This document shows positions 2,504 to 47,885 of a stretch of DNA of 64,000 nt, piece by piece. The stretch comes from Rhodospirillales bacterium. Its GTDB lineage: Bacteria > Pseudomonadota > Alphaproteobacteria > Rhodospirillales > Casp-alpha2. The notes beneath the pieces were generated by a model. It was not told where the DNA came from and made no database searches. It was given only the letters and a program-made list of their open reading frames with translations. Within the stretch, counting starts at the first letter, position 1. Every line of letters begins with the position of its first letter. Made by a program: the position numbers and the translations under genes. The stretch spans positions 62,001 to 126,000 of the forward strand of contig JAJFII010000009.1 in NCBI GenBank assembly GCA_021775095.1, written 5' to 3'.

Positions 2504-2543
2504 AGATTAAATCTGGTTACTTATCATTTCACTCGTAAAAGTG

Positions 2544-28928: not shown

Positions 28929-28951
28929 GTGTTGCGTAAAGGAATTGACGA

Positions 28952-29449: not shown

Positions 29450-29455
29450 GAACGG

Positions 29456-29665: not shown

Positions 29666-29761
29666 CTTTAACGGATTCCTGATTGCTGGTTGCCATGATA
29701 TGGCGATGCGCGGTAAATTCGATTGTGAAGTTATGAGTTTACACAGATTTAGGGGCCTGTC

Positions 29762-29920: not shown

Positions 29921-29978
29921 TCCGAATTGCGATGGCGCTTATAAAGACGGTTCGTGTCGAACCGGCCAATTTCTGTCC

Positions 29979-30491: not shown

Positions 30492-30519
30492 GGCGTCATG
30501 GCGCGAATGGATCTGTTAT

Positions 30520-31041
30520 TCATAAAACACGAAAAATCGGTTCGACCGCATCGACACCAAATTTATAGGTCGAAATACCGATACTGAAGTTTAGATGTTG
30601 ATCACCCTGCGAACAGGGGAACGACAGCGTTTCAATGGTTCTGGGTTTATCAATGGAGCCAATTTTCAACACATCGTTGCGACGGGTGAAACCTATTCGT
30701 CTTTCCAGATAAACCCGTTTATGAAGCTTGCTGATTAAGTCCTGTTGATGGTGCCCGGAATAACACTGTTCAAAAGTGCGGCCCATGGCATTGAAGCCAA
30801 TGTATTCATCAATTTTGGTGCCCGTAAAATGATATAAAAATCCGTTGTCTATCCCCCCTCGGTAATCGTAGACCCATAGGTAGGGAACAAGTTGGGGAAC
30901 CTTCATCAAGTCAAGTTTTTGATAATCGGGGAACGTTTTCCGGCCTTTTTCTTTAATAAGAAACTCGCTGAAAGCAACCAATTCTGGTCCGACGCCAAGT
31001 GATTTAATCTGCTCTAAATCGATCAAAAACGAAAACCTCAA
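30520..31041 (-). CDS. Single-domain PAS-like protein
   Basis: A 173-residue protein of the PAS-type family common in Rhodospirillales: residues about 45-160 contain KVPQLVPYLWVYDYRGG, FLYHFTGTKIDEYIGFNAMGR and a late RRIGFTRRNDVLKIGSIDK-like beta run. No output domain is attached. It may sense a small ligand; nothing more can be said. The 260 bases upstream hold no recognised gene. Confidence 0.6.
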   Translation of the reverse strand: MRFSFLIDLEQIKSLGVGPELVAFSEFLIKEKGRKTFPDYQKLDLMKVPQLVPYLWVYDYRGGIDNGFLYHFTGTKIDEYIGFNAMGRTFEQCYSGHHQQDLISKLHKRVYLERRIGFTRRNDVLKIGSIDKPRTIETLSFPCSQGDQHLNFSIGISTYKFGVDAVEPIFRVL

Positions 31042-31302
31042 ATAAAAAAACAGTCGTCCATACCCGAAGTCTGGATCCTAAATCGTATCGTGCTAGGAGG
31101 GTAATCGAATTCGTCATGCCACTCCATGGCGAGCGCAGTTTACGCTGTATTTTTCGATAATACTTCCTTTTTTTTGACCGCCTCTTATCGGCTGAGAACT
31201 GAACAATTACATCGTCTTGATATCCCTGGGCCATGGCATTGTGACGGTCAGTTCAACGCTGCCACTCGGGTAATTAGCGGCAAAGTTTGGCGGCATTTTC
31301 GC

Positions 31303-32868: not shown

Positions 32869-32941
32869 AACAGTCTTCTAAACAAAGGCATCCTGGGAGT
32901 CACGTATTGTGGACGCCGGTCCTGCCTGATCGCCGATGCAC

Positions 32942-35629
32942 TCAAGCGTTTTCAATGTCCTGCCACCATTTTACCGTCGCCTGAACCGTTTCCTCAAAAG
33001 CCGGCATGAGGGCCTCCACAGCGGCAATATCTTCAGCGATACGCTCGATTTTGTGGGCATCGTCGAATAATTTTACGGCGAACATGGAACCACTCATGCC
33101 GACAATGGAATGGGCTGCATTTCTGATCGCCGGGGTATTTTTATTGGCAATACCTGCCCGCAGTTCCTGCAGGCGAGTGGTAACACCCAGTTGTGTTTCC
33201 CTGAGAATTCCATGGACCTTTTCAAGCGGGAACTGGGATTTAAAGGAAGTGAACTTTTCAATGCTGCCGATCGGTTTCGGGCCTGCAATGGATTTCTCGG
33301 AGATCCCATCGCCGCCATCGTCAGACACGTTCTGGTCAGAAGGGCTGCGTTCCTGTTCCGGGCCATATTGGTGGAGTACATCCATCAACTGGTCTTGGGT
33401 GAAGGGTTTGGTGAGGACCGCATCCATGCCGGCCTTTTTGAATTCCGCGTGGCGTTCGGCAAATGCCTCGGCGGTTAAGCCGATGATCGGTATGTGGGTG
33501 CCGCCAGGTCGGCTCCTGATGATTTTGGTGGCATCAATTCCGTTCATTTCCGGCATGTGGATGTCCATCAGGATCAGGTCAAATACCGAATTTTCCAGTA
33601 TCTGCGTGGCTATAAGGCCATTTTCAACAAGTTCGACCTGATGACCGGCCTGAGTTAAAAATGTTTCTGCGATCATCGCATTAACCGCGTTGTCTTCGGC
33701 GACAAGTACCCGTAAATTTTTGTCCTCTTCCGTATGGCGGAGCCTGTGGGTACGGCGCTGCAGGTGTGCAGATTCTGCCGCCGATGCCAGGTCAAAGGGC
33801 AGGATGACATCGAAGCGGGTCCCTTCCCCTAATTTGCTGTGCGCGGTAATAGATCCGTCCATCAAATCGACCAGGCGTTTGACGATGGATAAGCCCAGGC
33901 CCGAGCCGCCAAATTTACGGGTAATAGAGGTATCTTCCTGAGTAAACGCATCGAAAATATAAGGCAATCGATCCTCCGCGATACCGGTTCCCGTGTCTTC
34001 AACAGATATACATATGGCCATGGCCTTCGGCCGGCCTGATTCCGGAATTGGCACGGGCACATCGGTTATTCTGAGGGTAACCTGGCCCGCCTGGGTGAAT
34101 TTTATGGCATTGCTCAACAGGTTCCAGATGATTTGCCGCATGCGCACCGGGTCGCCTTTGAGCCCGTCAGCGCTGCTCGACGTTTCAATGACCCTCAGAT
34201 CAATGCCTTTTTCGTCAGCCAGGGATTGAAATGGCGTCGATACCGACGAAAATAAGTTTTTCAGACTGAATGCGGTAATCTCCAATTCGATGCCGCCGGC
34301 CTCGATCTTACTCATATCCAACACGTCGCTGATGATCGCCAGCAAGGTTTGCCCTGAGGAAAGAATGGTCTCGACTCTTCTACTTTGTTCGGGCTGCAAG
34401 TCGGAGTTTTTCAGTAACTGAGCCATGCCCAGAACGCCGTTGAGTGGGGTTCGGATTTCGTGGCTCATGGTCGCCAAAAAATTGGATTTGGCACTGTTGG
34501 CAATTTCCGCCTCGCGCTGTGCATGTTCGGCTTCCGCCGCCATGCGAACGGCTTTTTCTTCGCTAACCTGCAAATCACGGGTGCGCTGGTCAACCAGTCG
34601 AGCTGTCACTTCCGCTCGGTTCATGTAAGCCAGGCAAATCGCCGTGGTCATAAGGGTCAAGGTCAAACCGACGATCAAGACAAACCAGGTCAAACCGTCC
34701 ATGGACAAAAACAAATTCGCCCCGTGCGTCGGTTGCGTAAAGATTATACTCCAGCCGTTGCCAAGGACCGGAAGGTTTAAGGCATAAGACAAGGACTGGG
34801 TCGCTTCGCCGCTCGGGCGATCGGCGTTATTATACAGAAGTTGGTTTGCTTTTGCCGCTGTCCGGTCGACGACCTGAATTTGCGTGTCCGTTAATTTTGG
34901 CAGCGGTGACAGGGATGCGTTGATAATGTCATTAATCCGAAACACCCCCAAAACAAATCCTTTTATGCTTTTTTCCCGTTCGGCCGGGGTATCGCTTGCC
35001 AGGTCGCGGCGAAATACCGGTTGAAAAGCCAGAAAACCCGAAGCGTTCCCGGTTTCCTGAACCCGTGTTATGCGTTGTGACAGGACAACCTGGCCGCTGT
35101 CGCGCGACGCCACTAAGGCCTGTTTTCTGGCCGGGTTCGACGCCATGTCAAAACCAAAAGCTTTTTGGTTCTGATAAAGCGGTTCGACGTAATAAACCGG
35201 GTAATATTCCGGACGACGTTGGGCTTCGACCAATGTGCCGCTGGCATTGTGCTCGACGAACCGAAAATCCGTAAACCCGTGGAATTGTGCGGCTGTTTCC
35301 AAAGAGGAACGGCGATCGTCGGTAACCCGGGGAACCCACTCGATGGCCTGTATGCCGGCGGACTTTTCAATCAGGTTTTTAACAAAAGATGAAAACTGCT
35401 CTCTCGATACCGTCGCCGCGGATTGAAAGAAGGCTTGTACCGCCGCCAGATATTCGAGGTTTTTGTTGAGGTTGGTGTGAACGGCCTGGTAATAGGGGAC
35501 GGTCTTTCGCGAAAAAGCTTTTTCATATTCCTGTTGGGCGGTTTGATACAGATAGGAAGTGGAAGCAGCAGTCACCAGCAGGCCGGACAGAACGATCAAA
35601 AATATCCAAATGTAGCGGCTGAGACCCAT
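32942..35629 (-). CDS. CHASE-domain hybrid sensor histidine kinase with receiver and Hpt domains
   Basis: An 895-residue protein. A membrane segment near 7-27 is followed by a periplasmic CHASE-like domain (~40-300, with [20 protein letters not shown]), a second span near 313-335, the HisKA histidine near 390 ([13 protein letters not shown]), a GHKL ATPase domain (~495-615: [24 protein letters not shown]), a receiver with Asp near 689 ([13 protein letters not shown]), and a C-terminal Hpt domain with His near 840 ([14 protein letters not shown]). The ligand of the sensor is unknown. A four-step relay could be closed inside this protein and hand on to a separate regulator. No regulator is adjacent on the same strand. 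Confidence 0.9.
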
Positions 35630-35741
35630 AACGTCATTTTACCCAAGTTAACCACACAATAAAATGCTGGACATTCAACCTTATGTTCTACCAGTCCTGC
35701 ATAGCTGTCTATCTAAATTGAATATTTTCCCCTGCCATTTA

Positions 35742-36479
35742 TCAGCCCGACCAGTCAGCCAGACGTTTTGCGGCGCGCCCGACTACCGCATGGAGCAACA
35801 CGGTAAACAGTGCCAAAACAAACAACGAGGCGAACATCAAATCTATCTTAGCCCGACCGCTGGCCAATAACATCAGATACCCAAGGCCATGTGCGGAGCC
35901 AACCCATTCGCCGATAACGGCACCGATGGGCGCGTAAACAGCGGCCAGACGGAGGCCCGAGCCTAACGACGGCAACGCCGCCGGCAGGCGCAACCGAAAT
36001 AAAATGATTTTGTCCGACGCTCCCATGGTTTTGGCCAGATCCAGCAGACCGGGATCGGTGCGTCTCAGGCCATCGAAAAAATTGGATGCCACCGGAAAAT
36101 AGATGATCAGGATTGCCATGACGATTTTTGACCAGATTCCATAACCCAACCACAGGGTCAGAATAGGAGCCAGGGCAAAAACCGGCACGGCCTGGCTAAA
36201 AACCATAACCGGCAACACGAACCGTCGGGCGCCGGGCGATATCATAAGATGAAGTGCCGTCCCCATGCCGAGCACCGATCCAATTAATAAGCCGGCCAAA
36301 ACTTCCGCAATGGTAATTTGTGCATGCTCAAAGATCAGCTCGAAATCAGACAGGAAAGCCAGCCAGACGCGGGCCGGGCCGGGTAAAATGAAATGCGGCA
36401 CACCCGATAACCAGACAAGCAATTGCCAGGCGCCGACGGCGACCGCAAATACCAAAATAATATCCAGGGTCTTACGCAT
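35742..36479 (-). CDS. thiX: ABC permease for the thiamin pyrimidine precursor (ThiX-like)
   Basis: About 245 residues with six hydrophobic segments and the permease EAA-type loop LAKTMGASDKIILFRLRLPAALP. It resembles the NitT/TauT-type permeases used for HMP-type substrates. The role follows from the operon: thiD, thiY, tenA and the ATPase precede it. The start was set at MRKTLDII (36479), which overlaps the end of the ATPase gene by eight bases; longer starts give an unlike Cys/Arg-rich tail. Confidence 0.82.
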   Translation of the reverse strand: MRKTLDIILVFAVAVGAWQLLVWLSGVPHFILPGPARVWLAFLSDFELIFEHAQITIAEVLAGLLIGSVLGMGTALHLMISPGARRFVLPVMVFSQAVPVFALAPILTLWLGYGIWSKIVMAILIIYFPVASNFFDGLRRTDPGLLDLAKTMGASDKIILFRLRLPAALPSLGSGLRLAAVYAPIGAVIGEWVGSAHGLGYLMLLASGRAKIDLMFASLFVLALFTVLLHAVVGRAAKRLADWSG

Positions 36480-37227
36480 GGCTTGGCGCCCGCAATTGCT
36501 GCAGCAGGGCAATCTGGGTTTGTATGGTCTCCGGTGCGTCATAGGCGCGCAGGGGTAAACTGGACGGCACTGCATAATCGCTAAGTCCCTGTTCTGTCAG
36601 AATCCGTATATGGTGCCCGAGCCGGGCCGCTTCCGACGGGTCATGGGTGACCAGCAATACGGTCCGTCCGGCCAGCATTTCGAAGGCCAGTTCCTGCATT
36701 TCCGAGCGGGTTTTGGCATCCAGCGCGGCAAAGGGTTCGTCGAGCAGGACAAATGGGCGGTCCTCCATCAAGGCCCGGGCCAGGGCAACCCGTTGGCGCA
36801 TACCGCCCGACAAGGCGGCTGGCCGTTTGTTCCTGTGATCGGATAACCCGACCCGGGAAATCAGCCTGTCGGCGCGCGCCACATCCGGTTTTTCACCCCG
36901 TAACCGGGCACCAAGAACGATATTGTCATGGATGTTCAACCAAGGTGCTAATAAATCCGACTGGCCCATATAGGCGATGCGGTTCTGCAGGGGCAGGTCA
37001 TCGTCGGTTTTGATGGTGCCACAAAAACGGCCACCGGTTTTTAGTCCGGCCAACAGGCGCAGCAGGGTCGATTTGCCGACACCCGACGGCCCCAGCAAAC
37101 AGGTCCAGACACCGGCAGCAACTTTTAGTGTCAGGCCGGTGAACAGCACCTGGTCCTGGTGATTAAAATCACCCTTAAGGGTAACACCGGGGACGGGTGG
37201 CGGGGACGGCGAGCGGGGCTCTGGCAT
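36472..37227 (-). CDS. thiZ: ABC ATPase for the thiamin pyrimidine precursor (ThiZ-like)
   Basis: About 251 residues. Walker A LLGPSGVGKSTL near 44-55, the signature ALSGGMRQRVALARALM and Walker B VLLDEPFAALDAKT are present. The start ATG 37227 overlaps the stop of tenA (TAATG), which supports coupling and argues against the upstream start at 37296. It pairs with the permease ThiX and binding protein ThiY to import 4-amino-5-hydroxymethyl-2-methylpyrimidine or a precursor (family knowledge). Confidence 0.85.
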   Translation of the reverse strand: MPEPRSPSPPPVPGVTLKGDFNHQDQVLFTGLTLKVAAGVWTCLLGPSGVGKSTLLRLLAGLKTGGRFCGTIKTDDDLPLQNRIAYMGQSDLLAPWLNIHDNIVLGARLRGEKPDVARADRLISRVGLSDHRNKRPAALSGGMRQRVALARALMEDRPFVLLDEPFAALDAKTRSEMQELAFEMLAGRTVLLVTHDPSEAARLGHHIRILTEQGLSDYAVPSSLPLRAYDAPETIQTQIALLQQLRAPSHA

Positions 37228-37916
37228 TAGTGGCCCCGCAGTGCCATTTGCCAAAAATCGATTTCCAGGCGGGTTGCCGTCCGAAACCGTTTGCACAAAG
37301 TGGCCCAGCGCGGGTTATCCGCTGGCTTCGACCCAAGCCGCGCACGGGCGGCTTTTTCAACCATCGATCCGAGCCCATGACAAAGGCCCTGGTATTCCTC
37401 ACTGGCGTAAACATCAATCCACTCCTGGTACGGAGTATCGGCCGCCGCCGAAGGGCCGATGGTCCGGCCAATGACGCCATAACCGAAAACGCAGGGTGCC
37501 AGAGCCGCCATCATATCAAGAAAATCGCCAGCCAAGCCGCTGTCCATGACAAATCGGGTATAAGCGAGATTTTCAAAAGTCTCTTCGGCGCTAAACAGTT
37601 GGTTTTCAGTGATGCCAATTTTGCGGCAGGTCTCCACATGCAGTTGCATTTCCACATTGACCAGCGTATCAACCATCGTCGCGGCGATTTTCATCTCCTC
37701 CAGGGTCTCGGACTTAACCACGGCCAGGGCCCAGGCGCGGGTGAAATGAACCAGAAAAATATAGTCCTGGATCATGTAATGGTGAAAACAGGCTGTCGGT
37801 AAACTGCCGTCGCCCAGGCCTTTGACGAATCCATGGTTGGTGTAAGTGGTCCAGTCCTCGCCGCTGGCCTGGCACCACGCCCCAAGCACCGGCGAGGTAT
37901 AAAGGGCCGAGCTCAT
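37227..37916 (-). CDS. tenA: Aminopyrimidine aminohydrolase / thiaminase II
   Basis: A 229-residue helical TenA protein with FHHYMIQDYIFLVHFTRAWALA, ETCRKIGITENQL, LAPCVFGYGVIGR (conserved Cys) and YQEWIDVYASEEYQGLC. TenA recovers HMP from degraded thiamin (aminopyrimidine). The gene overlaps the upstream thiY end by four bases and the downstream thiZ start by one, so the whole set is tightly coupled. Confidence 0.93.
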   Translation of the reverse strand: MSSALYTSPVLGAWCQASGEDWTTYTNHGFVKGLGDGSLPTACFHHYMIQDYIFLVHFTRAWALAVVKSETLEEMKIAATMVDTLVNVEMQLHVETCRKIGITENQLFSAEETFENLAYTRFVMDSGLAGDFLDMMAALAPCVFGYGVIGRTIGPSAAADTPYQEWIDVYASEEYQGLCHGLGSMVEKAARARLGSKPADNPRWATLCKRFRTATRLEIDFWQMALRGH

Positions 37917-38848
37917 TCGGCACTCAGATCAACGGCCAATTTGGAAACCGGGATGACAGATTTGATCAATCCGCTGCTTTTCAAAAAGGCCTCGAAGCGG
38001 AGATAACGACCGTGGTCCAGGGCCGTCGGACGCAGGGCAAACCGCGGCAGGGTATCGGCCCATGCCCGTTTGTTAAGGGCGTCCTGAAGTTCTTTTGATG
38101 TGGCCGAAAAAATCTCCCAGCTTTCTTTCGGGTGATTGACCATGAACTGGGTTGCCAGTTCCGTTGCGGCCAGAAAACGTTTGATTTTATCGACGTCCAT
38201 GGTCTTGGCATTGGCCACATAAATCAACTCGTCGTAGGCGGGCAGGCCTTCCTCTTCCAAATAAAAACAACGGCCTTTAATCCCTTCAATATCCATCTGA
38301 TTGAGCTCAAAATTGCGAAAGGCGCCAATCACTGCATCCACTTGCTTTGACATCAAAGATGGTGACAGGGACCAATTGACGTTGATCAGTTCGACATCTT
38401 TGATACTCAGCCCACTGTTTTTCAAGACCGCATCTAACTGTACTTCTTCGACACCAGCCACTGAAAACCCGATTTTCCGGCCCTTCAGGTCCTTGATGGA
38501 TTTTATCGGGCCGTCGTCGAGCACCAGAATGCAGCTCAAAGGGGTCGCCACTAAAGTGCCAACCCGCATCAAAGGCAATCCCTCATGGACCTGCAGGTGC
38601 AACTGCGGCTGGTAGGAGACCGCCAGATCGGCGTTGCCCGCCGCAACCATTTTTGGTGGGTCTGCCGGATTGGACGGAGCGATAATTTCAAGCTCAAGGC
38701 CTAAATCTTTGAAAAAACCTTTTTCCTTGGCAATGATGATCGGGCCGTGGTCCGGGTTGACGAACCAGTCGAGGATAATCGTCATTTTGTCGGCCGCATG
38801 AGCAGGCAGGGTAATCAGCAGGCTTAACACGAATAAAACGGTTCTCAT
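37913..38848 (-). CDS. thiY: Periplasmic binding protein for the thiamin pyrimidine precursor (ThiY-like)
   Basis: A 311-residue NMT1/ThiY-like binding protein with a signal peptide (MRTVLFVLSLLITLPAHA, cut before ADK). It has ILDWFVNPDHGPIIIAKEKG, the family opening in which residues contact the pyrimidine, and SNPADPPKMVAAGNADLAVS. It should capture formylaminopyrimidine or HMP in the periplasm for ThiXZ. The gene lies 32 bases downstream of thiD on the same mRNA. Confidence 0.88.
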   Translation of the reverse strand: MRTVLFVLSLLITLPAHAADKMTIILDWFVNPDHGPIIIAKEKGFFKDLGLELEIIAPSNPADPPKMVAAGNADLAVSYQPQLHLQVHEGLPLMRVGTLVATPLSCILVLDDGPIKSIKDLKGRKIGFSVAGVEEVQLDAVLKNSGLSIKDVELINVNWSLSPSLMSKQVDAVIGAFRNFELNQMDIEGIKGRCFYLEEEGLPAYDELIYVANAKTMDVDKIKRFLAATELATQFMVNHPKESWEIFSATSKELQDALNKRAWADTLPRFALRPTALDHGRYLRFEAFLKSSGLIKSVIPVSKLAVDLSAE

Positions 38849-38880
38849 TATTTTTCCTAATTAGGCGTGAGGCGACGGAC

Positions 38881-39702
38881 CTAAGTCCAGGTTCGATAAA
38901 AATGATGGACCGGGCCATGGCCGGAACCGATACCCAGGCCGTCGGCAGCGGCGATGGCACCGTGCAGATACCTGTGCGCGTCACCTACCGCATCGGTCAT
39001 CTGCAAACCTTTTGCCAGCCCGGTGGCAATCGCCGCCGACAGGGTGCAACCGGTGCCATGGGTATTGTTTGTGGCAATTCGTGGCGCGCTAAACCGCACG
39101 GACGGGGCGTTTTGACTAAGCAGAATATCGACGCAGTCTGGCCCCTCTGAATGGCCGCCCTTCATCAGTACGGCTTTCGGTCCCATCGCCAGCAGGGCCC
39201 GGCCATGCTGCTCGACGGCGTCGGTCGTTGTCGCCGGCTGGCAGCCAAGCAATACGGCGGCTTCCGGCAGATTGGGTGTCAGCAGGGTCGCCAATGGCAA
39301 CAACGCATGACGAAGAGAAGAAATCGCCGCGTCCTGCAGCAGGGCATCACCGGATTTGGCGATCATTACCGGATCGAGAACCAGCGGTGCGGACTGGAAT
39401 TTTAAAGCCTCAGCAACGGTAGTGATGATCTCGGATGTGGCCAGCATGCCGATTTTCACGGCGTCGATGCGGATATCATTAAATACCGCGTCCAATTGGG
39501 CAGCAATGATATCGGTCGGTACGCCATGAACCGCCGTGACCGCACGGGTATTTTGTGCGGTTATGGCGGTAATCACGCTGGCCCCATAGACACCGAGGGC
39601 TGAAAAAGCCTTTAAGTCAGCTTGGATACCGGCCCCACCGCCACTATCGGAACCGGCGATGGTCAGCGCCGTTGCAACCGCATTAGGCAAGGTAGTCGTC
39701 AT
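38881..39702 (-). CDS. thiD: Hydroxymethylpyrimidine/phosphomethylpyrimidine kinase
   Basis: About 274 residues. ALTIAGSDSGGGAGIQADLK near residues 12-31, VLDPVMIAKSGD and the anion-hole region NNTHGTGCTLSAAIATGLA are the ThiD signature motifs. It phosphorylates HMP to HMP-P and HMP-PP for thiamin synthesis. ATG 39702 (MTTTLPNAV) was chosen because GGGGA lies five bases upstream; longer frames run through the riboswitch leader. First gene of the thiamin salvage operon. The operon here has no thiE or thiC. Confidence 0.93.
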   Translation of the reverse strand: MTTTLPNAVATALTIAGSDSGGGAGIQADLKAFSALGVYGASVITAITAQNTRAVTAVHGVPTDIIAAQLDAVFNDIRIDAVKIGMLATSEIITTVAEALKFQSAPLVLDPVMIAKSGDALLQDAAISSLRHALLPLATLLTPNLPEAAVLLGCQPATTTDAVEQHGRALLAMGPKAVLMKGGHSEGPDCVDILLSQNAPSVRFSAPRIATNNTHGTGCTLSAAIATGLAKGLQMTDAVGDAHRYLHGAIAAADGLGIGSGHGPVHHFYRTWT

Positions 39703-39762
39703 TCTCATCCCCATAGCCCACAACCGGACAGAATTGGGGTTTTCGAATGACATGTATCGACT

Positions 39763-39857
39763 GATCGCAGCATTCGTTCCCTCCGCCGGTATTAACCAGA
39801 TCAGGTTCAATGGGTTAGCTTCCGCTTCTCAGCCCTTCGGGCACCCCAACGTTGGGC
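39763..39857 (-). promoter_or_regulatory. TPP riboswitch (THI element) in the thiD leader
   Basis: Read on the minus strand it has GGGGTGCCCGAAGGGCTGAGA (shown here in pieces: GGGGTGCCC, CTGAGA), ACCCATTGAACCTGATCTGG and TTAATACCGGCGGAGGGAA. These are the conserved THI-box blocks that bind thiamin pyrophosphate, including intact CUGAGA and AGGGAA. It begins a few bases after the predicted transcription start and ends about 60 bases before thiD. A CCCCA in the spacer (near 39742) can pair with the GGGG before the thiD start, suggesting control of translation; that part is inference. Confidence 0.95.
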
Positions 39858-39860
39858 ATG

Positions 39861-39889
39861 TGTATATCAGTGTGGATGGGGGTATTCAA
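39861..39889 (-). promoter_or_regulatory. Sigma70-like promoter of the thiD operon
   Basis: On the minus strand, -35 TTGAAT (39889-39884), 17-base spacer, -10 TATACA (39866-39861). The start point would fall near 39855, just at the first base of the riboswitch. The same promoter layout is kept in the relic copy at 42221-42249. Confidence 0.6.
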
Positions 39890-39984
39890 TATGCAACATG
39901 CGCGGCCTCATCTTCGTCCTGATTTAACGGGGCGTTCGGCTATCGCCGGCCAGCTTTAACGGTGGCTTGTCCGTCGGTCGAATT

Positions 39985-40431
39985 TTACCGGGTTCGGTTT
40001 TCTTTGCGAATGACCAGTTTTAAAGCTGACCAGACGTCATCGACGGCACAGACTTTAATGTCGACGAGGCCCATGGGTAAAATGACCTCTCGGATTGTAT
40101 CTTCCGTAATATCCGTCGGCACACCCGATGATTTTTTAGGCCAGGACACCCAAATCATGCCATCCTGTTTGATTTTGGTTTTCAGCAGACGGATACCAGA
40201 CATCAACTGTTTTTTGCTGTCTGTGAAAAAGTGCACCATATCGAGGTTTGGTCTTAATCGTTTGGCAATTATGACGCCCTCAGGGATTGGCGCAATCAGG
40301 GATTGGTAGTTGGCCGGTGGGTTTTTAAGGTAGAGTAAATGACCCGGTTTGATACCAAGTTTATTGACCAAAGGGGTTCCTGAATATCCGGCTATCTGCA
40401 TCTTTTTTCCTACTGCGTCTCTATCCGCCAT
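39985..40431 (-). CDS. DUF3052 domain protein
   Basis: A 148-residue cytosolic protein with the family pattern AGYSGTPLVNKLGIKPGHLL, VHFFTDSKKQL, DGMIWVSWPKKSSGVPTDIT and GLVDIKVCAVDDVWSALKLV. DUF3052 proteins have no firm function. ATG 40431 gives an extra ten residues before the conserved core; ATG 40401 is possible. It sits at the edge of the decayed zone, with an SDR remnant upstream on the same strand. Confidence 0.75.
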   Translation of the reverse strand: MADRDAVGKKMQIAGYSGTPLVNKLGIKPGHLLYLKNPPANYQSLIAPIPEGVIIAKRLRPNLDMVHFFTDSKKQLMSGIRLLKTKIKQDGMIWVSWPKKSSGVPTDITEDTIREVILPMGLVDIKVCAVDDVWSALKLVIRKENRTR

Positions 40432-40455
40432 CGGCGATATCCACCTGGCCTGCTA

Positions 40456-40711
40456 TCAGATCCGATGCACCGGGAACAAGGCCAAATCAGCAATTTCTTT
40501 GGACTCACCGGTCACGGCGACTGCTTTATGGCCACCGGCTTCGGATCTTTTGCCAGACCAGCTCCAGACCCGATTGATCTCGACTGGCGGCAACCGCGTT
40601 GGCACCGGCAGCGGCCAAGGTCTCATAAATAGTGATCCCAATGCCCCTGAAAGCCCCTGTCACCAAGGCCCGTTCGTCGGCAATGGAAAACCGCTCTTTC
40701 CAGTCTGGCAT
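40456..40711 (-). pseudogene. Short-chain dehydrogenase remnant A (truncated, frameshifted)
   Basis: From ATG 40711, which has a good RBS (GGAGG in GCCGGAGGAAATGAAAA), the frame reads MPDWKERFSIADERALVTGA, then FRGIGITIYETLAAAGANAV and ASRDQSGLELVWQKI. This is the start of an SDR with a modified cofactor loop (TGAFRGIG for TGxxxGIG). After about residue 57 the reading frame must shift by one to continue as EAGGHKAVAVTGESKEIADL, then it ends at about 85 residues. The catalytic Tyr-Lys region is missing. A similar fragment lies at 44.6-44.8 kb. Confidence 0.7.
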
Positions 40712-41008
40712 TTTTCATTTCCTCCGGCAAAATAAAACGCCCTGTTCCGGGACTTTTTGTCCATTGCAAGCCGACCTCAGCGCCAGCAAATTTCAAGGAC
40801 TGTTCTCTTCCATATCGAGCCGTTCGCCATTGCCTGTGCCTATTGAATCTCTGCCTGAAATTGATTTCACATGGGTCGGAAATGAGTATATATTAAGGTA
40901 GTATCATTTTCCTAATTGTCTCGTAAATGGAATGGAAACTTTTTTACTTCGTGTAATTAATTTTGATTTGGTTCTTAAAACGCTCCGTTTGGAAGTTGTT
41001 AAACTGTA

Positions 41009-41911
41009 GTGTCAAAAGTTATTTTTACTTTCAAAGACAAATCGATTTACGACGACCTTCCGGAATCGCGCTATCATTTTCCCCGCACCTATTTAAATAC
41101 CGTTGAACGCGCGATTGGTGATTGGGTTTTGTATTATGAACCACGCAGAAACTCGGAGAACCCAAGCAGTCGAGGCGGTCGGCAAGCCTATTTTGCGACG
41201 GCGATCATTGAACGAATCGAAAGAGATCCCGCCAGCGAGGACCATTTTTATGCCTATGTCCATGATTATTTGGAGTTTGAAAACCCGGTACCGTTTAAGG
41301 CGGCAGATCGCTACTTTGAGAGTTCGTTAAAACGAGATGACGGGAAAACCAATAAAGGTGCATTTGGCCGTGCCGTGCGGTTCATACCGGATGTTGAATT
41401 TAATCTTATTGTTGCCGCTGGTTTTATGAATTTGATGGTCAGCCACGCGCCGTCCCTTGACACCTTTCAGATTGGTGGTTTTAGCGAGGATCCAGAGACA
41501 TTCCATAGGCCTGTTATTGCATCTGTCGTGGCGCGTCCCTTCAGAGATCGGGCGTTCCGGCTTAATGTCGGGCAAGCCTATGGAGCGAGTTGTGCGATGA
41601 CCGGAATCCAGATTAGAAATGATAAGGGACACGTGGAGGTCGAAGCCGCGCACATTCGACCTGTGGCGGACAGAGGGCCAGATACTGTCCGCAACGGATT
41701 GGCCTTGTCGCGAAGTATCCACTGGATGTTTGATGGCGGGCTCATTTCATTGGAGGATGACGGAACAATTCTATTGGATGAGGGACGGGTGCCTCTCAAA
41801 ATAAAGGAAATTTTGAATGAAAATGGCAAAATGTTTCTGCCGGATCGCGCCGACGCGCATCCTCATCCAAAATATCTAAAATTCCACCGAGACCATGTAT
41901 TTAGGGGATAG
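41009..41911 (+). CDS. HNH endonuclease-domain protein, putative modification-dependent restriction enzyme
   Basis: A 300-residue protein. The C-terminal part has an HNH_2-type nuclease core: CAMTGIQI near 195-202, EAAHIRPV with His near 215, NGLALSRSIHWMFDGG with Asn near 229 and His near 238, then LISLEDDGTILL. The N-terminal ~115 residues (GDWVLYYEPRR, GRQAYFATAIIERIERDP, HFYAYVHDYLEFENPVPF) look like a PUA/EVE-type reader domain (inference). A reader plus HNH architecture suggests a type IV, modified-DNA-specific restriction enzyme. It stands alone, with no methylase nearby; its upstream 297 bases are AT-rich and hold no recognised gene. Start ATG-like codon at 41009 follows TAACTGTAG and is a GTG. 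Confidence 0.7.
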   Translation: MSKVIFTFKDKSIYDDLPESRYHFPRTYLNTVERAIGDWVLYYEPRRNSENPSSRGGRQAYFATAIIERIERDPASEDHFYAYVHDYLEFENPVPFKAADRYFESSLKRDDGKTNKGAFGRAVRFIPDVEFNLIVAAGFMNLMVSHAPSLDTFQIGGFSEDPETFHRPVIASVVARPFRDRAFRLNVGQAYGASCAMTGIQIRNDKGHVEVEAAHIRPVADRGPDTVRNGLALSRSIHWMFDGGLISLEDDGTILLDEGRVPLKIKEILNENGKMFLPDRADAHPHPKYLKFHRDHVFRG

Positions 41912-41947
41912 CGAGAGGTCGTTTTGGATTTATAGCCACAGCGCCCC

Positions 41948-42064
41948 TTAACTCCATAGACCACCGTTAGGCAGCCCATGGAGGAGAAAGTTGGCCTGTT
42001 CGTGCCCACAGTATATGGCAATACACAGCATCGTTGGAACCCCATTAGAGAAGGCGTTGGTCAC
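41948..42064 (-). pseudogene. thiD 5'-end relic (duplicated fragment)
   Basis: On the minus strand a 39-codon frame starts GTG ACC AAC (VTNAFSNGVPTMLCIA...) and ends TAA at 41948. It aligns with the N-terminus of the intact thiD (MTTTLPNAVATALTIA): the DNA shares TAATGxGGTTxCAACG and further matches through TCTATGG near its end. The start codon has changed from ATG to GTG and the GSDSGGGAG substrate motif is destroyed. It follows the relic riboswitch at the same distance as in the intact copy. Confidence 0.7.
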
Positions 42065-42122
42065 TTTATCCCTGCAGTCCACAACTGGACAGGACTGGGT
42101 TTTCGAATGACAAGTATTGTGT

Positions 42123-42216
42123 GATCGCAGCATTCGTTCCCGCCGCCGGTATTAACCAGATCAGGTTCAATGGGTCAGTTTTCGCTACTCAGCCCTTCGG
42201 GCACCTCAACGTAGGC
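42123..42216 (-). promoter_or_regulatory. Decayed duplicate TPP riboswitch
   Basis: It keeps GGTGCCCGAAGGGCTGAG, ACCCATTGAACCTGATCTGG and TTAATACCGGCGG in the same order as the intact copy at 39763-39857. Two core positions differ: CTGAGA has become CTGAGT and AGGGAA has become CGGGAA. Both blocks contact the ligand in known TPP riboswitches, so binding is probably lost. No intact thiamin gene follows it. Confidence 0.85.
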
Positions 42217-42220
42217 GGAT

Positions 42221-42249
42221 GGTATATCAGTGCGGACCACTGGATTCAA
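42221..42249 (-). promoter_or_regulatory. Promoter relic ahead of the duplicate riboswitch
   Basis: -35 TTGAAT (42249-42244), 17-base spacer, -10 TATACC (42226-42221), in the same arrangement as the promoter of the intact thiD operon. It could still start transcription toward the HNH gene's 3' end. Confidence 0.5.
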
Positions 42250-42392
42250 AATGGAACTTGCAGGCCCTTTCCGATGGGACGCTGACTGCGTCAATTCAGA
42301 CATTCTGGATTTCCAAGAACTTTCGACGGTTAGTCAGCCAAAAATCAGAGTCTGGTCCCGGCGCGGACGATGCCGCACCGGAACAGGATGCA

Positions 42393-44291
42393 TCAGCCCA
42401 GCGGCAAACCATCGTCGCGGGTTACCGCGATCACTGCCGAACGCGGGACGCTGTCGCCGCCTTCCGGCCAGTGCGAATTGCCGCGCTCACCGGGATGCTG
42501 GATACCGACAAACAGGGTCTTGCCATCAGCCGACATTGCCGCACCGGTGACCTCGCATTCTTTGGGGCCCACCAGGAACCTCTTGATTTCGCCCGTCGCC
42601 GGATCGCCGACCAGCATCTGGTTGTTGCCCTGACCGGCAAAATCGCCTTTGTTGGAATAATTCCCGTCAGTCTGGATCCACAAAAGCCCCTTGCTGTCGA
42701 AAAACAGCCCATCGGGTGAATTGAACATATTACCATCATTGATGTTCACAGAGCCGCCATAGGCATCTTTGTGGACCGTGGGGTTGCCAGCCAGCGCGAA
42801 CAGGTCCCAACGGAAGCTGTCCGCGCCATGGTCCGCGTTCGCCGGCCACCAACGCACGATTTGGCCATAGTTGTTTTCGGCGCGCGGATTTGGCCCAACA
42901 GGCGGGGTTGCGTCGCCACCGGCATTGGTCTTGATGGCGCGGTTTTTGTTGTTGGTCAGAGCGCAATAGATCTCGGCCTTTTTCGGGTTGGCTGCGACCC
43001 ATTCCGGGCGGTCCATTGTTGTCGCACCGACCGCTGAGGCCGCCATTCTGGCATGGATGACAACCTCGGCCTGCGAAGACATACCGGTCGTTTGCGGCGT
43101 CAAAGCCAGCCATTTTCCGCTGCCATCGGGATGAAATTTCGCCACATAAAGTGCGCCTTCAGCTAACAGATCTGAATTGTCGGCACCTTCGGCATAGACC
43201 CCCGAAGAGACGAAGCGATAGAGGAATTCACCACGCTCGTCGTCGCCCATATAGACCACAATATGGCCGTCACCGTTGACAACAACTTCGGCGTTCTCGT
43301 GCTTAAACCGGCCAAGTGCTGTTCGTTTCTTGGGCATCGATTCAGGGTTAGAGGGATCAATTTCGACCACCCAGCCGTTACGATTGGATTCGTTCGGATG
43401 TCTGGCGATGTCAAATCGTTCGTCGATCTGCGCCCAACCATAACCCCGATCCTTGACGCTGACGCCATAACGCTTCTGTGCGGCGGTTATTTCGATGTCG
43501 GGATCGGACGACGAGTAGTACCCGTTGAAATTTTCTTCGCAGGCTAGGTAGGTGCCCCAGGGTGTCCGTCCGTTGCCGCAATTGTTCCAGGTACCAAAGC
43601 AACGCGTACCTGACGGGTCAGCTGCGGTTTGCAGCAGCGCATGACCGGCCCCCGGCCCGGTAATCTCCATCTCCGTTTTGGGAGTGATGCGGCGGTTGTA
43701 GGGACTGTCTTTGACCATTGCCCATCCGTTGGCACCCTTGGCGATTTCGACGACAGAGACGCCATGCGCCTGCAAGCCTTTCAGCACGTCGTCGTCTGTC
43801 TCGAACTTGCCATCGGGACGATTGCCCCACATGACTGAACGGTTGGTGTATTCGTTGTTGTTGACCAGAACGCTGGCGTCGCCCAGTTCAAACAACGCCA
43901 TGCCGTCGACGTTGTCGCCGTAGGCACTCGCCTGGCTCTCACCAGTTCCGCGCGTCGCATGATCAAACTCGGCAACGCCCGAGAACATCGGATCGCCCCA
44001 CCGAACCACGACCTGACTGGAATAGCCGTTCGGAACGGTGACCGCATCCATGGTGTTCGCCGCAATCTGGTCAAATCCCAGCCGCGACCCGGCGGCAACT
44101 GCTGGCATTGATGTCAGTGCCGAGGTGCCAAGCACGAACGTGCCGGCACCAAAGGCCATCACGCCGCCCAAAAAACCACGGCGTGAAAGCGCTTCGTCGA
44201 CGACTCGGTCAAAATCCGTGACCGCCGGCGGTGGGTTCAGGGCCTCGTCAAACTCATCAAATGTTTCCAATTCAGTTTTGAACTTCGTCAT
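42393..44291 (-). CDS. phoX: PhoX-family alkaline phosphatase (DUF839), Tat-exported
   Basis: About 632 residues. The N-terminus has a twin-arginine signal: RR near 37-38 in ALSRRGFLGGVMAFGAG, followed by a hydrophobic stretch and SMPAVAAGS. The body shows PhoX traits such as CFGTWNNCGNGRTPWGTYLACEENF (in pieces: NNCGNG, TPWGTYL, CEENFNGYY) and SPDGLFFDSKGLLWIQTDG. PhoX enzymes are Ca/Fe-dependent phosphatases exported folded by Tat to free phosphate from organic esters. ATG 44291 was chosen from the GGAGG seven bases upstream; upstream frame is unlike homologues. No Pho box was confidently placed. Confidence 0.88.
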   Translation of the reverse strand: MTKFKTELETFDEFDEALNPPPAVTDFDRVVDEALSRRGFLGGVMAFGAGTFVLGTSALTSMPAVAAGSRLGFDQIAANTMDAVTVPNGYSSQVVVRWGDPMFSGVAEFDHATRGTGESQASAYGDNVDGMALFELGDASVLVNNNEYTNRSVMWGNRPDGKFETDDDVLKGLQAHGVSVVEIAKGANGWAMVKDSPYNRRITPKTEMEITGPGAGHALLQTAADPSGTRCFGTWNNCGNGRTPWGTYLACEENFNGYYSSSDPDIEITAAQKRYGVSVKDRGYGWAQIDERFDIARHPNESNRNGWVVEIDPSNPESMPKKRTALGRFKHENAEVVVNGDGHIVVYMGDDERGEFLYRFVSSGVYAEGADNSDLLAEGALYVAKFHPDGSGKWLALTPQTTGMSSQAEVVIHARMAASAVGATTMDRPEWVAANPKKAEIYCALTNNKNRAIKTNAGGDATPPVGPNPRAENNYGQIVRWWPANADHGADSFRWDLFALAGNPTVHKDAYGGSVNINDGNMFNSPDGLFFDSKGLLWIQTDGNYSNKGDFAGQGNNQMLVGDPATGEIKRFLVGPKECEVTGAAMSADGKTLFVGIQHPGERGNSHWPEGGDSVPRSAVIAVTRDDGLPLG

Positions 44292-44574
44292 GGGTTTTCC
44301 TCCAAAGGTCTGATCCGGCATTCCCCATTTGGATTGCCATGGGGCAAAGTAACAGAAGCAAAGGCGGTTCTCCAAGCCTTTTGATGGCCCTGTTCCGCGC
44401 CGAAAGCTCAAGAATTTCACGTGGTGCTGCCAAGTTGGCCGTTTCGCAACCCGTGGGGTCATTTGACTGTGCCCCGGACATCGTTTTCCTGTCGCCAGTG
44501 TCGGGGGCTCGCAAATTTCACCGTGATTCCAGTCACGTATACGCCGCTCCTGTTGTGGTCCTCTACCCGGTCCA

Positions 44575-44786
44575 GTTCACCGGTCCTGGCGACGGCTTTG
44601 CGGCCACGGGCCTTGATCCTTTGGCAGAGCTGTTCATGATCCGATTGATCCCGGTCGGCGGCAACTACATCGGCACCGGCGACAGCCAGGGTCTCACGGA
44701 TGGCAAATCCGATGCCCCCGGGACGCCCGGTCTCGAAGGCCCGTTTGTGCCGACAACGGAAATTCGTCCTCTCCGGTCTGATATAT
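44575..44786 (-). pseudogene. Short-chain dehydrogenase remnant B
   Basis: On the minus strand one frame reads RAFETGRPGGIGFAIRETLA, VAGADVVAADRDQSDHEQLC and QRIKARGRKAVARTGELDR. It aligns along its length with remnant A (40456-40711), both at DNA and protein level, e.g. GAGACC-TGGC-GCCGGTGCC. There is no start codon in frame and the N-terminal part is shifted. It ends at the same place as remnant A (after AVA-TGE). The rest of the 663-base gap between the PhoX and cyclase genes (44292-44574 and 44787-44954) shows nothing recognisable. Confidence 0.65.
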
Positions 44787-44954
44787 TATTCTCTCTGTTT
44801 TAGATACCTTGTCCTTACACCCCTTGCCGAATCGCCCCGCCAATTATTTGGCCGGTATGGGGGCATTCAACAAGTGCGGGGAAACGATTTCGTGACCAAC
44901 TCCAAGGGCGCGAGCCCATGAAGCCGGTCACGACGGAACCAGTCAAGGATTGGC

Positions 44955-46019
44955 TTAATACAAGGCGATAGGATTGCCCGGTGAGCCGGTACCGCCCTTG
45001 ATTTTCAGGGGCGACCAGACGAACAGGAATTCATAGGCTTTGTCGGCAACCAATTGCGACAGGTCGAGGTTTTCCAAATTCCAGATGCCGCGACGGGGCA
45101 TCATTTGCGCGTGGCATTCGAAAATTTCATCTCTCTCGCCCTTAAATCCGGCACCCACGGCTTCCGTCGCCCAGGTGTCGCCGCCCCACAGGATGATTTT
45201 TTGTTCGGCCAGATAATCGCAGGCCGAAATGCCAAATCCCGGTTCCCCAGAATTAAACTGGGCGATGCGTTTTTGTTTTTCGGCGGCATCAAAGGTATCC
45301 CATTTCGACGGGTGCCAAATATCGCCATGGCCAGTATATACAAACACACAGTCGCCCTCGCCAATTGGCTCGATACCCTGTCTTTTGATCATGGCTTTTA
45401 CGTCATCGGCAGTGACAATACCGGGGTCACTGGGATCGGCCTTTGTCGGAATTGGCAATTGACCGCCGCGCAGAGCGACCGCATCGAGCAGCACGCCACG
45501 GCAGACAAAGCCTTTTTTCGCCACATGTTCAACGCCCAAGGACCCCATACCATAGGAGGTGATGTCCGGGTCTTCCAGATGACGGCCATTATAGAAATAA
45601 TTGCCCTTGGACGTGAGAATGCCAATATGGCCGGGACCGTCAAACTGGGTGCCGATCTGACCGATTGCCGTCGACAGGTATTCGTCGTTGTAAACCATAC
45701 TATGGGCGCCAAAGGGGCCGCCCGTCGGCAATCCGGGAATGGTCATGCGCCAGCCGCGCGAACCAAAGGCCGGTGCGTCCTGTTGGTAAACCTTGCCCAA
45801 TGTGGCGACCTTGCCGCGTTTGACCAGTTTGGCGGCTTTCAGCACCAGTTCCGGTGTCGTCCGGTTGACGGAACCGGCTTTATCATCGGCACCCCACTCG
45901 CTGGGTGCCCACTGTTCCGTATAGGGTTTATCGTTGGCCGCAAAGGCCGAAACCCCGACCAAACTGCCCGACAGCGCCACAGCCAGCGCCGTAACGCCGG
46001 TTAAAATTTTAGTTCCCAT
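44955..46019 (-). CDS. Secreted cyclase-family (kynurenine-formamidase-like) protein
   Basis: About 354 residues with a signal peptide (MGTKILTGVTALAVALSGSL to VSAFAAND). The body has the cyclase-family fold markers WGADDKAGSVNRTTPE, GQIGTQFDGPGHIG near 121-134, and GEGDCVFVYTGHGDIWHPSKW (in pieces). In well-known members the metal motif is HxGTHxDxPxH; here two histidines are Gln (QIGTQFD), a variant seen in some secreted subgroups. Metal binding and substrate are thus uncertain. ATG 46019 has GGGAGAG upstream at a good spacing. Confidence 0.75.
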   Translation of the reverse strand: MGTKILTGVTALAVALSGSLVGVSAFAANDKPYTEQWAPSEWGADDKAGSVNRTTPELVLKAAKLVKRGKVATLGKVYQQDAPAFGSRGWRMTIPGLPTGGPFGAHSMVYNDEYLSTAIGQIGTQFDGPGHIGILTSKGNYFYNGRHLEDPDITSYGMGSLGVEHVAKKGFVCRGVLLDAVALRGGQLPIPTKADPSDPGIVTADDVKAMIKRQGIEPIGEGDCVFVYTGHGDIWHPSKWDTFDAAEKQKRIAQFNSGEPGFGISACDYLAEQKIILWGGDTWATEAVGAGFKGERDEIFECHAQMMPRRGIWNLENLDLSQLVADKAYEFLFVWSPLKIKGGTGSPGNPIALY

Positions 46020-46052
46020 CAAAAACTCTCCCTAGTTCGGTTGTCGTTATTC

Positions 46053-46066
46053 ACCCCCATGGGGGT
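46053..46066. promoter_or_regulatory. 14-base perfect palindrome between divergent genes
   Basis: ACCCCCATGGGGGT lies in the 225-base gap between the divergently transcribed cyclase-family gene and the aldo/keto reductase gene, close to the cyclase start. It could be an operator or only a small hairpin; no regulator gene is nearby. Confidence 0.35.
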
Positions 46067-46244
46067 TGAGTTGAAATTTTAACATATCATAATGATTGTC
46101 TTTAGGGGGAGACGAATTTTTGTCAGTCTGACAAAGGGTCCGCCCTGCGGTTCAATGGGCGGCGCAATTTCTGGATCAGCGCGCCGCAACCGGTAACTTG
46201 ATAACCGCCTCCGAACTTCTTAACTGTTGGACAGGAGACGTGAG

Positions 46245-47165
46245 ATGATTACAGATCGGCGCAGCCTTTTAAAAGCGGTTGTCGCAGGTGCCCTGGGCGG
46301 GACTGCGGCGGTCCTGCTGGCAACCGGTGCCCGGGCCCGACCCCATAGCCGGCCCGTTCCATCCTCCGGTGAGGAACTGCCGTTGGTCGGGCTCGGCAGT
46401 TGGATCACTTTTAATGTGGGCGACGATCAACGGGCACTCGATGGTTCGGCGGCGGTGATTGCGGCGTTCTTCGAGGCCGGCGGTCGGCTGATTGATTCGT
46501 CGCCCATGTATGCATCTTCCCAACCGACCATTGGTTATGGTTTGCGTAAATCAGGCTATCCGGCGCAATTATTTTCAGCCGAAAAAGTCTGGACGTCGTC
46601 CGGTTCGGCGGGTGCCGGCCAAATCGCACAAACCCGTGACCATTGGGGGGTGCGGGGTTTTGATCTGCTGCAGATACACAATCTTGTGGCCTGGCAGGAT
46701 CACCTGGAAACCCTGCGGACCCTGAAAGCGGCGGGGCAAATCCGATACATTGGCATAACCACCTCGCATGGGCGTCGCCATGAGCTGTGCGCAAAAATCA
46801 TGGCGACGGAAGCCATCGATTTTGTCCAGTTTACCTACAATATGGCGGACCGCCAAGCCGAACAGCGGCTTTTACCCCTGGCCCGCGACAGGGGTTTGGC
46901 GGTTATTATCAATCGACCCTACCAGCGCGGTGCCTTAATTCGCCGTCTGTCGAGATCACCTTTGCCAGTATGGGCTGCGGATACCGGGGCCGCGAGCTGG
47001 CCGCAGTTTTTGTTGAAATTCATAATCTCCCACCCGGCCGTCACCTGTGCAATTCCGGCAACCAGCCAGGTTGCCCATGTGCGTGAAAATATGGCAGTGG
47101 CGACCGGGCCCTTGCCCGATGCCCGATTGCGCCAGCGGATGGTGGATTATGTTGCGGGTCTGTAA
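46245..47165 (+). CDS. Aldo/keto reductase-like protein with Tat-type signal
   Basis: About 306 residues. N-terminus MITDRRSLLKAVVAGALGG is a twin-arginine-like signal, then LPLVGLGSWITFNVG, GGRLIDSSPMYASS, LLQIHNLVAWQDHL, GQIRYIGITTSH and CAIPATSQVAHVREN, the aldo/keto reductase barrel. In typical members Asp-Tyr-Lys-His form the active site; the aligned Asp, Tyr (MYASS), Lys (SAEKVW) and His (QIHN) are present. ATG 46245 has AGGAG seven bases upstream. Exported AKRs are uncommon, though a Tat leader fits folding with a nicotinamide cofactor before export. It is coupled to the next gene. Confidence 0.78.
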   Translation: MITDRRSLLKAVVAGALGGTAAVLLATGARARPHSRPVPSSGEELPLVGLGSWITFNVGDDQRALDGSAAVIAAFFEAGGRLIDSSPMYASSQPTIGYGLRKSGYPAQLFSAEKVWTSSGSAGAGQIAQTRDHWGVRGFDLLQIHNLVAWQDHLETLRTLKAAGQIRYIGITTSHGRRHELCAKIMATEAIDFVQFTYNMADRQAEQRLLPLARDRGLAVIINRPYQRGALIRRLSRSPLPVWAADTGAASWPQFLLKFIISHPAVTCAIPATSQVAHVRENMAVATGPLPDARLRQRMVDYVAGL

Positions 47166-47849
47166 ATGGCCGCCTGGTCCAGTTACACGCTTGATGATTT
47201 TTTATTGTTCTCCCTGCCGACCTACGAGCGCTTGTTCGAGCTGCACAACCGGGCCCTGTGGCCGGGCCATCTGCTGGTCCTGGTGGCGATCGTCGTGCTT
47301 GTGCACGGCGTGTTAACTCCCGCTCCGGCCAACAGAACGGTGTACACCCTGTTGGGGGTCATCTGGATCTGGCTCGCCGGGTCCTTTTTCCTCATGCGCC
47401 TGCAGCCGATCAATTGGTTTGCCGTCTATCTGGCGCCGGTGATCGCCCTGCAGGGGGTGATCCTGCTGATCTACGGATGGGTCGGTAAATTCCAGGCATC
47501 GGTTCCTGCGTCCGCTGTCGGGCGCTGGATGGCGATTGGTTTGCTGATCTTTGGCCTGTTGGGTTACCCCCTATCGGCCCTGGTTCTGGACCGCCCCTGG
47601 CAGGAAATGGAAATCTTTGCCCTGGCTCCAGATCCAACGGCGGTCGCCACTCTGGCGGTCCTCGCCGGCTGTGGTCGCGCCGCTCCCTGGCCGCTCTGGC
47701 TGATCCCCGGGCTGTGGTGTGGTTGGACCGGCCTGACCCTATGGGCCTTACAATCGCCGGCTTTTTTTATGGCGCCGACGGCCACCGTCGTTGCCCTGTT
47801 AATTGGCCTCGCGGCCTGGCTCCGCCGCCGCACTGCCGCACCCGTTTGA
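47166..47849 (+). CDS. DUF6064-like polytopic membrane protein
   Basis: A 227-residue membrane protein with about six hydrophobic segments. It opens YTLDDFLLFSLPTYERLFEL and has FALAPDPTAVATLAVLAGCGR and LIPGLWCGWTGLTLWAL, which resemble DUF6064 members. Function is unknown. Its ATG immediately follows the TAA of the aldo/keto reductase gene, so the two are probably translated together and may work together. Confidence 0.6.
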   Translation: MAAWSSYTLDDFLLFSLPTYERLFELHNRALWPGHLLVLVAIVVLVHGVLTPAPANRTVYTLLGVIWIWLAGSFFLMRLQPINWFAVYLAPVIALQGVILLIYGWVGKFQASVPASAVGRWMAIGLLIFGLLGYPLSALVLDRPWQEMEIFALAPDPTAVATLAVLAGCGRAAPWPLWLIPGLWCGWTGLTLWALQSPAFFMAPTATVVALLIGLAAWLRRRTAAPV

Positions 47850-47885
47850 TGATTCCTGGTAGTTCCTGACCAGCCAAAAAACCAC

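What the first reader, a model, noticed from the sequence alone, without database searches (positions are those of the whole stretch)
39763..42249. Duplicated promoter, TPP riboswitch and thiD 5' end decaying beside the intact copy
The block at about 41948-42249 repeats the thiD promoter (same -35, spacer of 17, near-identical -10), riboswitch and first 39 codons found at about 39660-39889, in the same orientation. In the relic the CUGAGA and AGGGAA blocks are changed, the start codon is GTG and the ThiD substrate motif is lost. The fragment shows how a riboswitch can be left without a gene.
Basis: seen in the sequence. Interest (0 to 1): 0.65.

Follow-up and report, generated by a model that had tools for sequence, protein, structure and literature searches.

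The report
Decayed duplicate of a thiamine riboswitch
A bacterium carries, just upstream of its working vitamin-B1 salvage operon, a broken second copy of that operon's promoter and RNA switch, left behind by a partial duplication; it is a clear but ordinary molecular fossil.

Summary
Window 42026-42261 repeats 39664-39901 in the same orientation (81% over 239 columns): promoter, TPP aptamer, leader hairpin and about 11 codons of thiD, not 39. The thiD copy scores 65.1 bits for RF00059; the other scores 45.7, below the cut-off of 54.3 but well above chance. Three of its changes hit bases invariant in 62 of 62 other thiD-linked aptamers, one being the CUGAGA adenine that stacks on the TPP pyrimidine. 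No gene follows beyond a 38-codon ORF. Neither same-genus genome with a thiD riboswitch has it, and both window copies share leader sequence those genomes lack, so it arose within this lineage. New here: a second decayed direct repeat, of a short-chain-dehydrogenase 5' end (40505-40707 and 44577-44780), interleaves with it. These are the only two close repeats found on the 207-kb contig, pointing to one partial tandem duplication, later filled and eroded; joining of two alleles is the main rival. An independent, younger case with the same layout lies at thiM in Erwinia aphidicola. A new member of a known kind (duplication relic).

The parts
39664..39901 (-). intact copy (A1): promoter, TPP riboswitch, leader hairpin and first codons of thiD
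   Evidence: 81% identical to 42026-42261
39761..39858 (-). TPP aptamer of thiD, presumed functional
   Evidence: RF00059 65.1 bits, cut-off 54.3
38881..39702 (-). thiD (phosphomethylpyrimidine kinase); start probably ATG at 39696
   Evidence: PF08543 E 8.4e-96; start inferred from homologous frames
35742..38848 (-). rest of the HMP salvage operon: NMT1/THI5-like binding protein, TenA-like protein, ABC ATPase, permease
   Evidence: Pfam for the first three; permease by reading its ORF, not scanned
42026..42261 (-). relic copy (A2): promoter, decayed TPP aptamer, leader, about 11 thiD codons with GTG start
42121..42218 (-). decayed TPP aptamer
   Evidence: RF00059 45.7 bits, below cut-off; three changes at positions invariant in 62 of 62 other aptamers
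40505..40707 (-). decayed 5' fragment of a short-chain dehydrogenase gene (B1)
   Evidence: 72% to 44577-44780; PF00106 E 1e-6; frame breaks after about 61 codons
44577..44780 (-). second decayed SDR 5' fragment (B2)
39985..40431 (-). DUF3052-like ORF between A1 and B1
   Evidence: PF11253 21.4 bits, just below cut-off 22.7
41009..41911 (+). HNH_2 endonuclease-like gene between B1 and the relic, convergent with it
   Evidence: PF13391 E 2.1e-11
42393..44462 (-). PhoX-like gene between relic and B2
   Evidence: PF05787 E 1.4e-172; a homologue lies just upstream of riboswitch-thiD in L099

Best explanation
42026-42261 is a non-functional relic of the thiD leader. In this lineage, after it split from its held sister species, a segment running from an SDR gene's 5' end through the thiD promoter and TPP riboswitch to about codon 11 of thiD was duplicated in tandem. 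The copy still attached to the full thi salvage operon stayed under selection. The outer copy, with no gene to regulate, lost a ligand-pocket base and a P2 pair and now carries a 38-codon frame of no recognisable meaning. Other genes (DUF3052-like, HNH, PhoX) now sit between the pieces. Shown: the repeat, its limits, its absence from the sister genomes, and the placement of changes. Inferred: that both repeats stem from one event, that TPP is no longer bound, and that nothing useful is expressed.
For: Direct repeat of 239 columns, beyond the aptamer on both sides. RF00059 65.1 versus 45.7 bits. Neither of the two same-genus genomes with a thiD riboswitch has a second copy, while both window copies share leader sequence and aptamer bases they lack. 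In the 80-nt aptamer core four changes fall on the relic branch, one on the intact branch, one unresolved. Three of the relic's (G13A, A32T, A77C) hit positions identical in 62 of 62 other aptamers. The six core differences lower a position-score as much as six randomly placed ones (36% of 20,000 random placements score at least as well). Non-aptamer divergence of A (32 of 137) is like that of B (60 of 219), Fisher P 0.46. A and B are the only two repeats under 12 kb apart at E<=1e-8 on the contig, same orientation, interleaved A1-B1-A2-B2. Independent parallel in Erwinia aphidicola.
Against: What lies between A and B differs in the two copies (DUF3052-like versus PhoX), which a plain tandem duplication would not give without later insertion and loss; and a distant relative (L099) has a PhoX homologue just upstream of its riboswitch-thiD, as the relic has, which fits merged alleles as well or better. 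The relic core has changed less than a neutral half-branch predicts (4-5 of 80; P 0.02-0.05 at p=0.128), so it may have stayed in use for a while. Its promoter boxes survive. B1 and B2 are only 72% alike and could be unrelated SDR duplications; the genome-wide DNA searches did not pair them. The sister genomes are drafts (290-410 contigs), and the window's assembly was not checked against reads.
Confidence: 0.8

Rival explanations
1. Merged alleles: DNA from a related strain, carrying its own arrangement upstream of riboswitch-thiD, joined the locus by recombination in the thiD leader, so the relic is a displaced leader rather than a copy made within one genome.
For: The genes between the matching pieces differ in the two halves. 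GC is 0.485 in 39902-42025 against 0.575 in 42262-44576 and 0.528 in 26486-39890. In L099 (Vannielia sp. MAG) a PhoX homologue (56% identical, 1151-3061) lies about 350 bases upstream of the riboswitch (3411-3515) and thiD, same direction, as PhoX does beside the relic. In Erwinia aphidicola the two halves also hold different genes (carbonic anhydrase versus a 198-aa ORF without Pfam match), and the leader is 97% alike while the thiM stretch is 85%.
Against: L099 is 1 of 80 named thiD loci and could be coincidence; apart from it, the seven proteins of this block gave no match at E<=1e-8 in those loci, and at E<=1e-3 only a 26%-identical aldo/keto-reductase match in L075. PhoX is missing at E<=1e-100 from G001-G003. 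The relic's changes at invariant sites show decay, not just strain divergence.
Confidence: 0.25
2. The relic is still useful: a riboswitch-derived small RNA or an antisense RNA against the convergent HNH gene, made from its retained promoter.
For: -35, 17-base spacer and -10 are retained, and the -10 TATACC equals that of the same-genus genome G001. The transcript would run toward the 3' end of the HNH gene. The aptamer differs less between the copies than the flanks do (9 of 98 versus 32 of 137, Fisher P 0.005), though constraint on the intact copy alone explains part of this.
Against: Ligand-pocket and P2 changes at invariant positions. No terminator-like site between the relic and the HNH gene (nearest on that strand at 41841, inside it). 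The relic's leader folds no better than shuffles (z 0.31). No second copy in the 36 relatives searched. The promoter scan did not list it, nor the intact one.
Confidence: 0.07
3. The riboswitch repeat and the SDR repeat are two unrelated duplications.
For: Different spacing (2362 and 4072 bases) and no similarity above shuffles in the sequence flanking either pair.
Against: They are the only two close repeats found on 207 kb, interleaved, same orientation, similar divergence.
Confidence: 0.25

Closest known systems
TPP riboswitch (THI element, RF00059)
   Same: Both copies align over the whole 105-position model in one architecture
   Different: The relic is below the gathering score and has lost the CUGAGA adenine, a P2 pair and the first A of AGGGA
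Erwinia aphidicola riboswitch-thiM partial duplication (L096, NZ_JACXBP010000003)
   Same: Riboswitch plus 5' end of the first gene duplicated upstream in the same orientation, with a second upstream marker interleaved; the duplicate has a change at a P2 guanine invariant in 62 of 62
   Different: Younger (97% identical leader), still above the RF00059 cut-off (66.1 against 73.2 bits), thiM instead of thiD; the junction fuses thiM to the 3' end of an XRE-type gene
Duplicated lysine riboswitch-lysW genes in Shewanella and Photobacterium (PMC5584792, passages read)
   Same: Riboswitch hypothesised by its authors to be copied together with its gene, then diverging
   Different: There the gene is kept; here only the leader and about 11 codons remain
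Clostridioides difficile c-di-GMP riboswitches called possibly nonfunctional (PMC6200980, one passage read)
   Same: Riboswitch sequences without evident cis regulation
   Different: The passage seen does not describe them as duplication relics

Membership tests
TPP riboswitch RF00059 (intact copy) | score at or above gathering cut-off 54.3 | tested here: met
   65.1 bits
TPP riboswitch RF00059 (intact copy) | upstream of a thiamine gene | tested here: met
   thiD, PF08543
TPP riboswitch RF00059 (relic) | score at or above gathering cut-off | tested here: not met
   45.7 bits
TPP riboswitch RF00059 (relic) | CUGAGA T-loop intact (pyrimidine pocket) | tested here: not met
   CUGAGU; that A is present in 62 of 62 others; equals A43, which stacks on the aminopyrimidine (PMC7824784 passage; residue mapping is mine)
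TPP riboswitch RF00059 (relic) | linked gene to control | tested here: not met
   only a 38-codon frame, not alignable to thiD beyond about codon 11
TPP riboswitch RF00059 (relic) | binds TPP | not testable with these tools
   needs in-line probing
Partial tandem duplication relic | direct repeat, same orientation, similarity beyond the conserved RNA | tested here: met
Partial tandem duplication relic | recognisable junction between the units | tested here: inconclusive
   the B1-A2 interval now holds the HNH gene; no similarity above shuffles flanking the pieces; a junction is visible only in the Erwinia parallel
Partial tandem duplication relic | same content in both units at the start | tested here: inconclusive
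   DUF3052-like in one half, PhoX in the other; later insertion or loss would have to explain it
Partial tandem duplication relic | absent from sister genomes | tested here: met
   G001 and G003 have one copy each at thiD; G002 (89% complete) gave no TPP match at all

The most novel reading that the evidence does not exclude
Leaders of thi operons are recurrent sites at which foreign or rearranged genes are added by recombination within the riboswitch leader, each time leaving an intact riboswitch on the operon and the old leader plus a stub of the first gene as a decaying footprint; the window and Erwinia aphidicola would be two independent cases at different ages.
Probability: 0.18. Interest if true: 0.5.

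Novelty: new member of a known kind. Interest (0 to 1): 0.3.

Why it matters
It is a clean example, bracketed by sister genomes, of a riboswitch losing its gene and then ligand-pocket bases while its working sister sits 2.4 kb away. Paired with the younger Erwinia case, it gives two time points for how regulatory RNA pseudogenes arise and decay. It is also a caution for annotation: an aptamer hit (the Erwinia copy passes the Rfam cut-off) is not proof of a regulated gene.

Tried and rejected
Extending the repeat to 41948 or to 39 codons: rejected, no better than shuffles. Similarity upstream of A, left of B or right of B: none above shuffles. A full-length SDR parent gene in the genome: the best hit to the 61-aa fragment outside this locus is 45% identical at G000:C22, not a convincing parent. 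tRNA or tmRNA genes as an integration target: none in the window. DNA search for the two SDR fragments in seven genomes (G000-G004, G007, G022): each found only itself, not even its partner, so that search is too blunt for a 72% match. PhoX as a genus marker: no match at E<=1e-100 in G001-G003; 11 of 37 genomes have one. Counting further riboswitch pairs across the order (297 genomes): the match table is cut and even the window's own pair is missing from it, so no frequency was drawn from it. Literature: four searches on riboswitch pseudogenes, relics and duplications; I saw 20 of 130, 25 of 65, 10 of 10 and 12 of 1,990 listed papers (titles and starts of abstracts) and passages of PMC5584792 and PMC6200980. 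None of what I saw describes a riboswitch left without its gene by duplication, but this is no claim of priority.

Full report
What is there. The thiD gene (38881-39702, minus strand) heads a salvage operon with an NMT1/THI5-like binding protein, a TenA-like protein and an ABC transporter ATPase. Its leader holds a TPP riboswitch at 65.1 bits. About 2.4 kb upstream, 42026-42261 repeats 39664-39901 in the same direction, 194 of 239 columns identical. The repeat covers the promoter (TTGAAT-17-TATACA versus TTGAAT-17-TATACC), the aptamer, the leader hairpin and about 11 thiD codons. RF00059 finds the second aptamer at 45.7 bits, E 8.4e-8, under the cut-off of 54.3. The start codon is GTG in the homologous place, followed by a 38-codon frame.

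When it arose. Of the three other held genomes of the genus, G001 and G003 carry one thiD riboswitch each and G002 (89% complete) no TPP match. A DNA search with the relic finds only the thiD copy in G001 and G003. All three are drafts. The two window copies share leader sequence downstream of the aptamer (alignment read by eye) and aptamer bases that G001 and G003 lack, so the duplication is younger than that split. G001 is collinear with the window up to 39890 and again from 47911, so the 8 kb holding the relic is inserted or rearranged relative to G001. G003's contig ends about 800 bases upstream of its riboswitch and says nothing about what lies further up.

Is it dead? In the 80-nt core there are six differences: four on the relic branch, one on the intact branch, one unresolved. 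Three relic changes, G13A, A32T and A77C, are at positions identical in 62 of 62 other thiD-linked aptamers (of 80 loci, 63 had a match, and L094 was omitted by oversight). Mapped by me onto E. coli thiM numbering these are G16 (P2), A43 and A80. The aminopyrimidine of TPP lies between G42 and A43 (PMC7824784, passage). A43 and A80 are listed among highly conserved nucleotides, and G16-C50 belongs to a base quadruple with A53 and A84 (PMC3764141, passages). The six core differences cost as much score as six randomly placed ones (36% of 20,000 placements do at least as well). The leader hairpin folds at -26.3 kcal/mol (z -1.81) in the intact copy and -15.8 (z 0.31) in the relic; the aptamers themselves fold no better than shuffles in either copy (z 0.09 and -0.53), so plain folding does not separate them there. 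Against a purely neutral history, the relic core has changed less than half the flank divergence would predict (P 0.02-0.05), so it may have served for a while after duplication. Numbers are small.

How it arose. A self-comparison of the whole 207,506-base contig gives five repeats at E<=1e-8. Only two lie within 12 kb, and both are here: the riboswitch pair and a pair of SDR 5' fragments, 40505-40707 and 44577-44780 (205 columns, 72%). They interleave in one orientation (A1 B1 A2 B2) and their non-aptamer divergence agrees (32 of 137 and 60 of 219, P 0.46). One partial tandem duplication is the simplest account. The weak point is that a DUF3052-like ORF lies between A1 and B1 but a PhoX gene between A2 and B2, so insertion and loss, or merging of two strains' alleles, must be added. 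The stretch 39902-42025 is poorer in GC (0.485) than its surroundings (0.528 on one side, 0.575 on the other). In one of the 80 named thiD loci, L099 (a Vannielia MAG), a PhoX homologue 56% identical to the window's lies about 350 bases upstream of riboswitch and thiD in the same direction, the order seen beside the relic. It may be chance, but it fits the idea that the relic sits in an older PhoX-riboswitch-thiD arrangement and that the A1-to-HNH stretch came in.

A parallel. Of the 80 named thiD loci, 63 have an aptamer match at E<=1e-6 and one, Erwinia aphidicola L096, has two (a 30-base partial match at E 0.15 in L060 and a 14.5-bit match at E 0.14 in L135 were left out). There the riboswitch and the thiM 5' end are copied upstream at 5574-5960 (97% over 262 bases, then 85% over 136). 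The copy ends in a junction with a repeat of the 3' end of the upstream XRE-type gene (91% over 35 bases), giving a 62-codon fused frame. One aptamer change is at a P2 guanine invariant in 62 of 62, though the copy still scores 66.1 bits. The layout is the same: upstream marker, relic leader, marker copy, a different gene, intact leader. Among 61 genomes (the window's own and 60 relatives), only the window's has two TPP matches on one contig; G001, G007 and G046 have two on separate contigs.

Verdict. It is a good example of a known process, not a new system.

Noticed in passing
40505-40707 and 44577-44780: Two decayed 5' fragments of an SDR gene, direct repeats, interleaved with the riboswitch repeats.
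   Followed up: yes
L096 5574-5960 and 6980-7429: Independent riboswitch-thiM 5' end duplication in Erwinia aphidicola with a thiM-XRE junction and a 198-aa ORF without a Pfam match between the copies.
   Followed up: partly
L099 1151-3515: PhoX homologue just upstream of, and in the same direction as, riboswitch-thiD in a Vannielia MAG, as beside the window's relic.
   Followed up: partly
whole genome G000: No ThiC (PF01964) match in G000 or in the three same-genus genomes, nor in G004 and G005 (12 of 21 genomes searched have one), so thiamine synthesis here probably rests on HMP salvage.
   Followed up: partly
39890-47911: 8 kb absent from the collinear stretch of same-genus G001, where an Oxidored_molyb gene sits instead.
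   Followed up: partly
41009-41911: HNH_2 endonuclease-like gene with a patchy distribution among relatives (7 of 37 genomes at E<=1e-5, G000 included).
   Followed up: no
L055 2059-2182: G001 has a second TPP match upstream of a FAD-oxidoreductase-like ORF at 2340-3293 (my reading of the ORF, not tested); G000 has no TPP match besides the two at thiD.
   Followed up: no
G000:C92 37004-37275 and 192016-192280: Another direct repeat, 76% over 278 columns, 155 kb apart.
   Followed up: no
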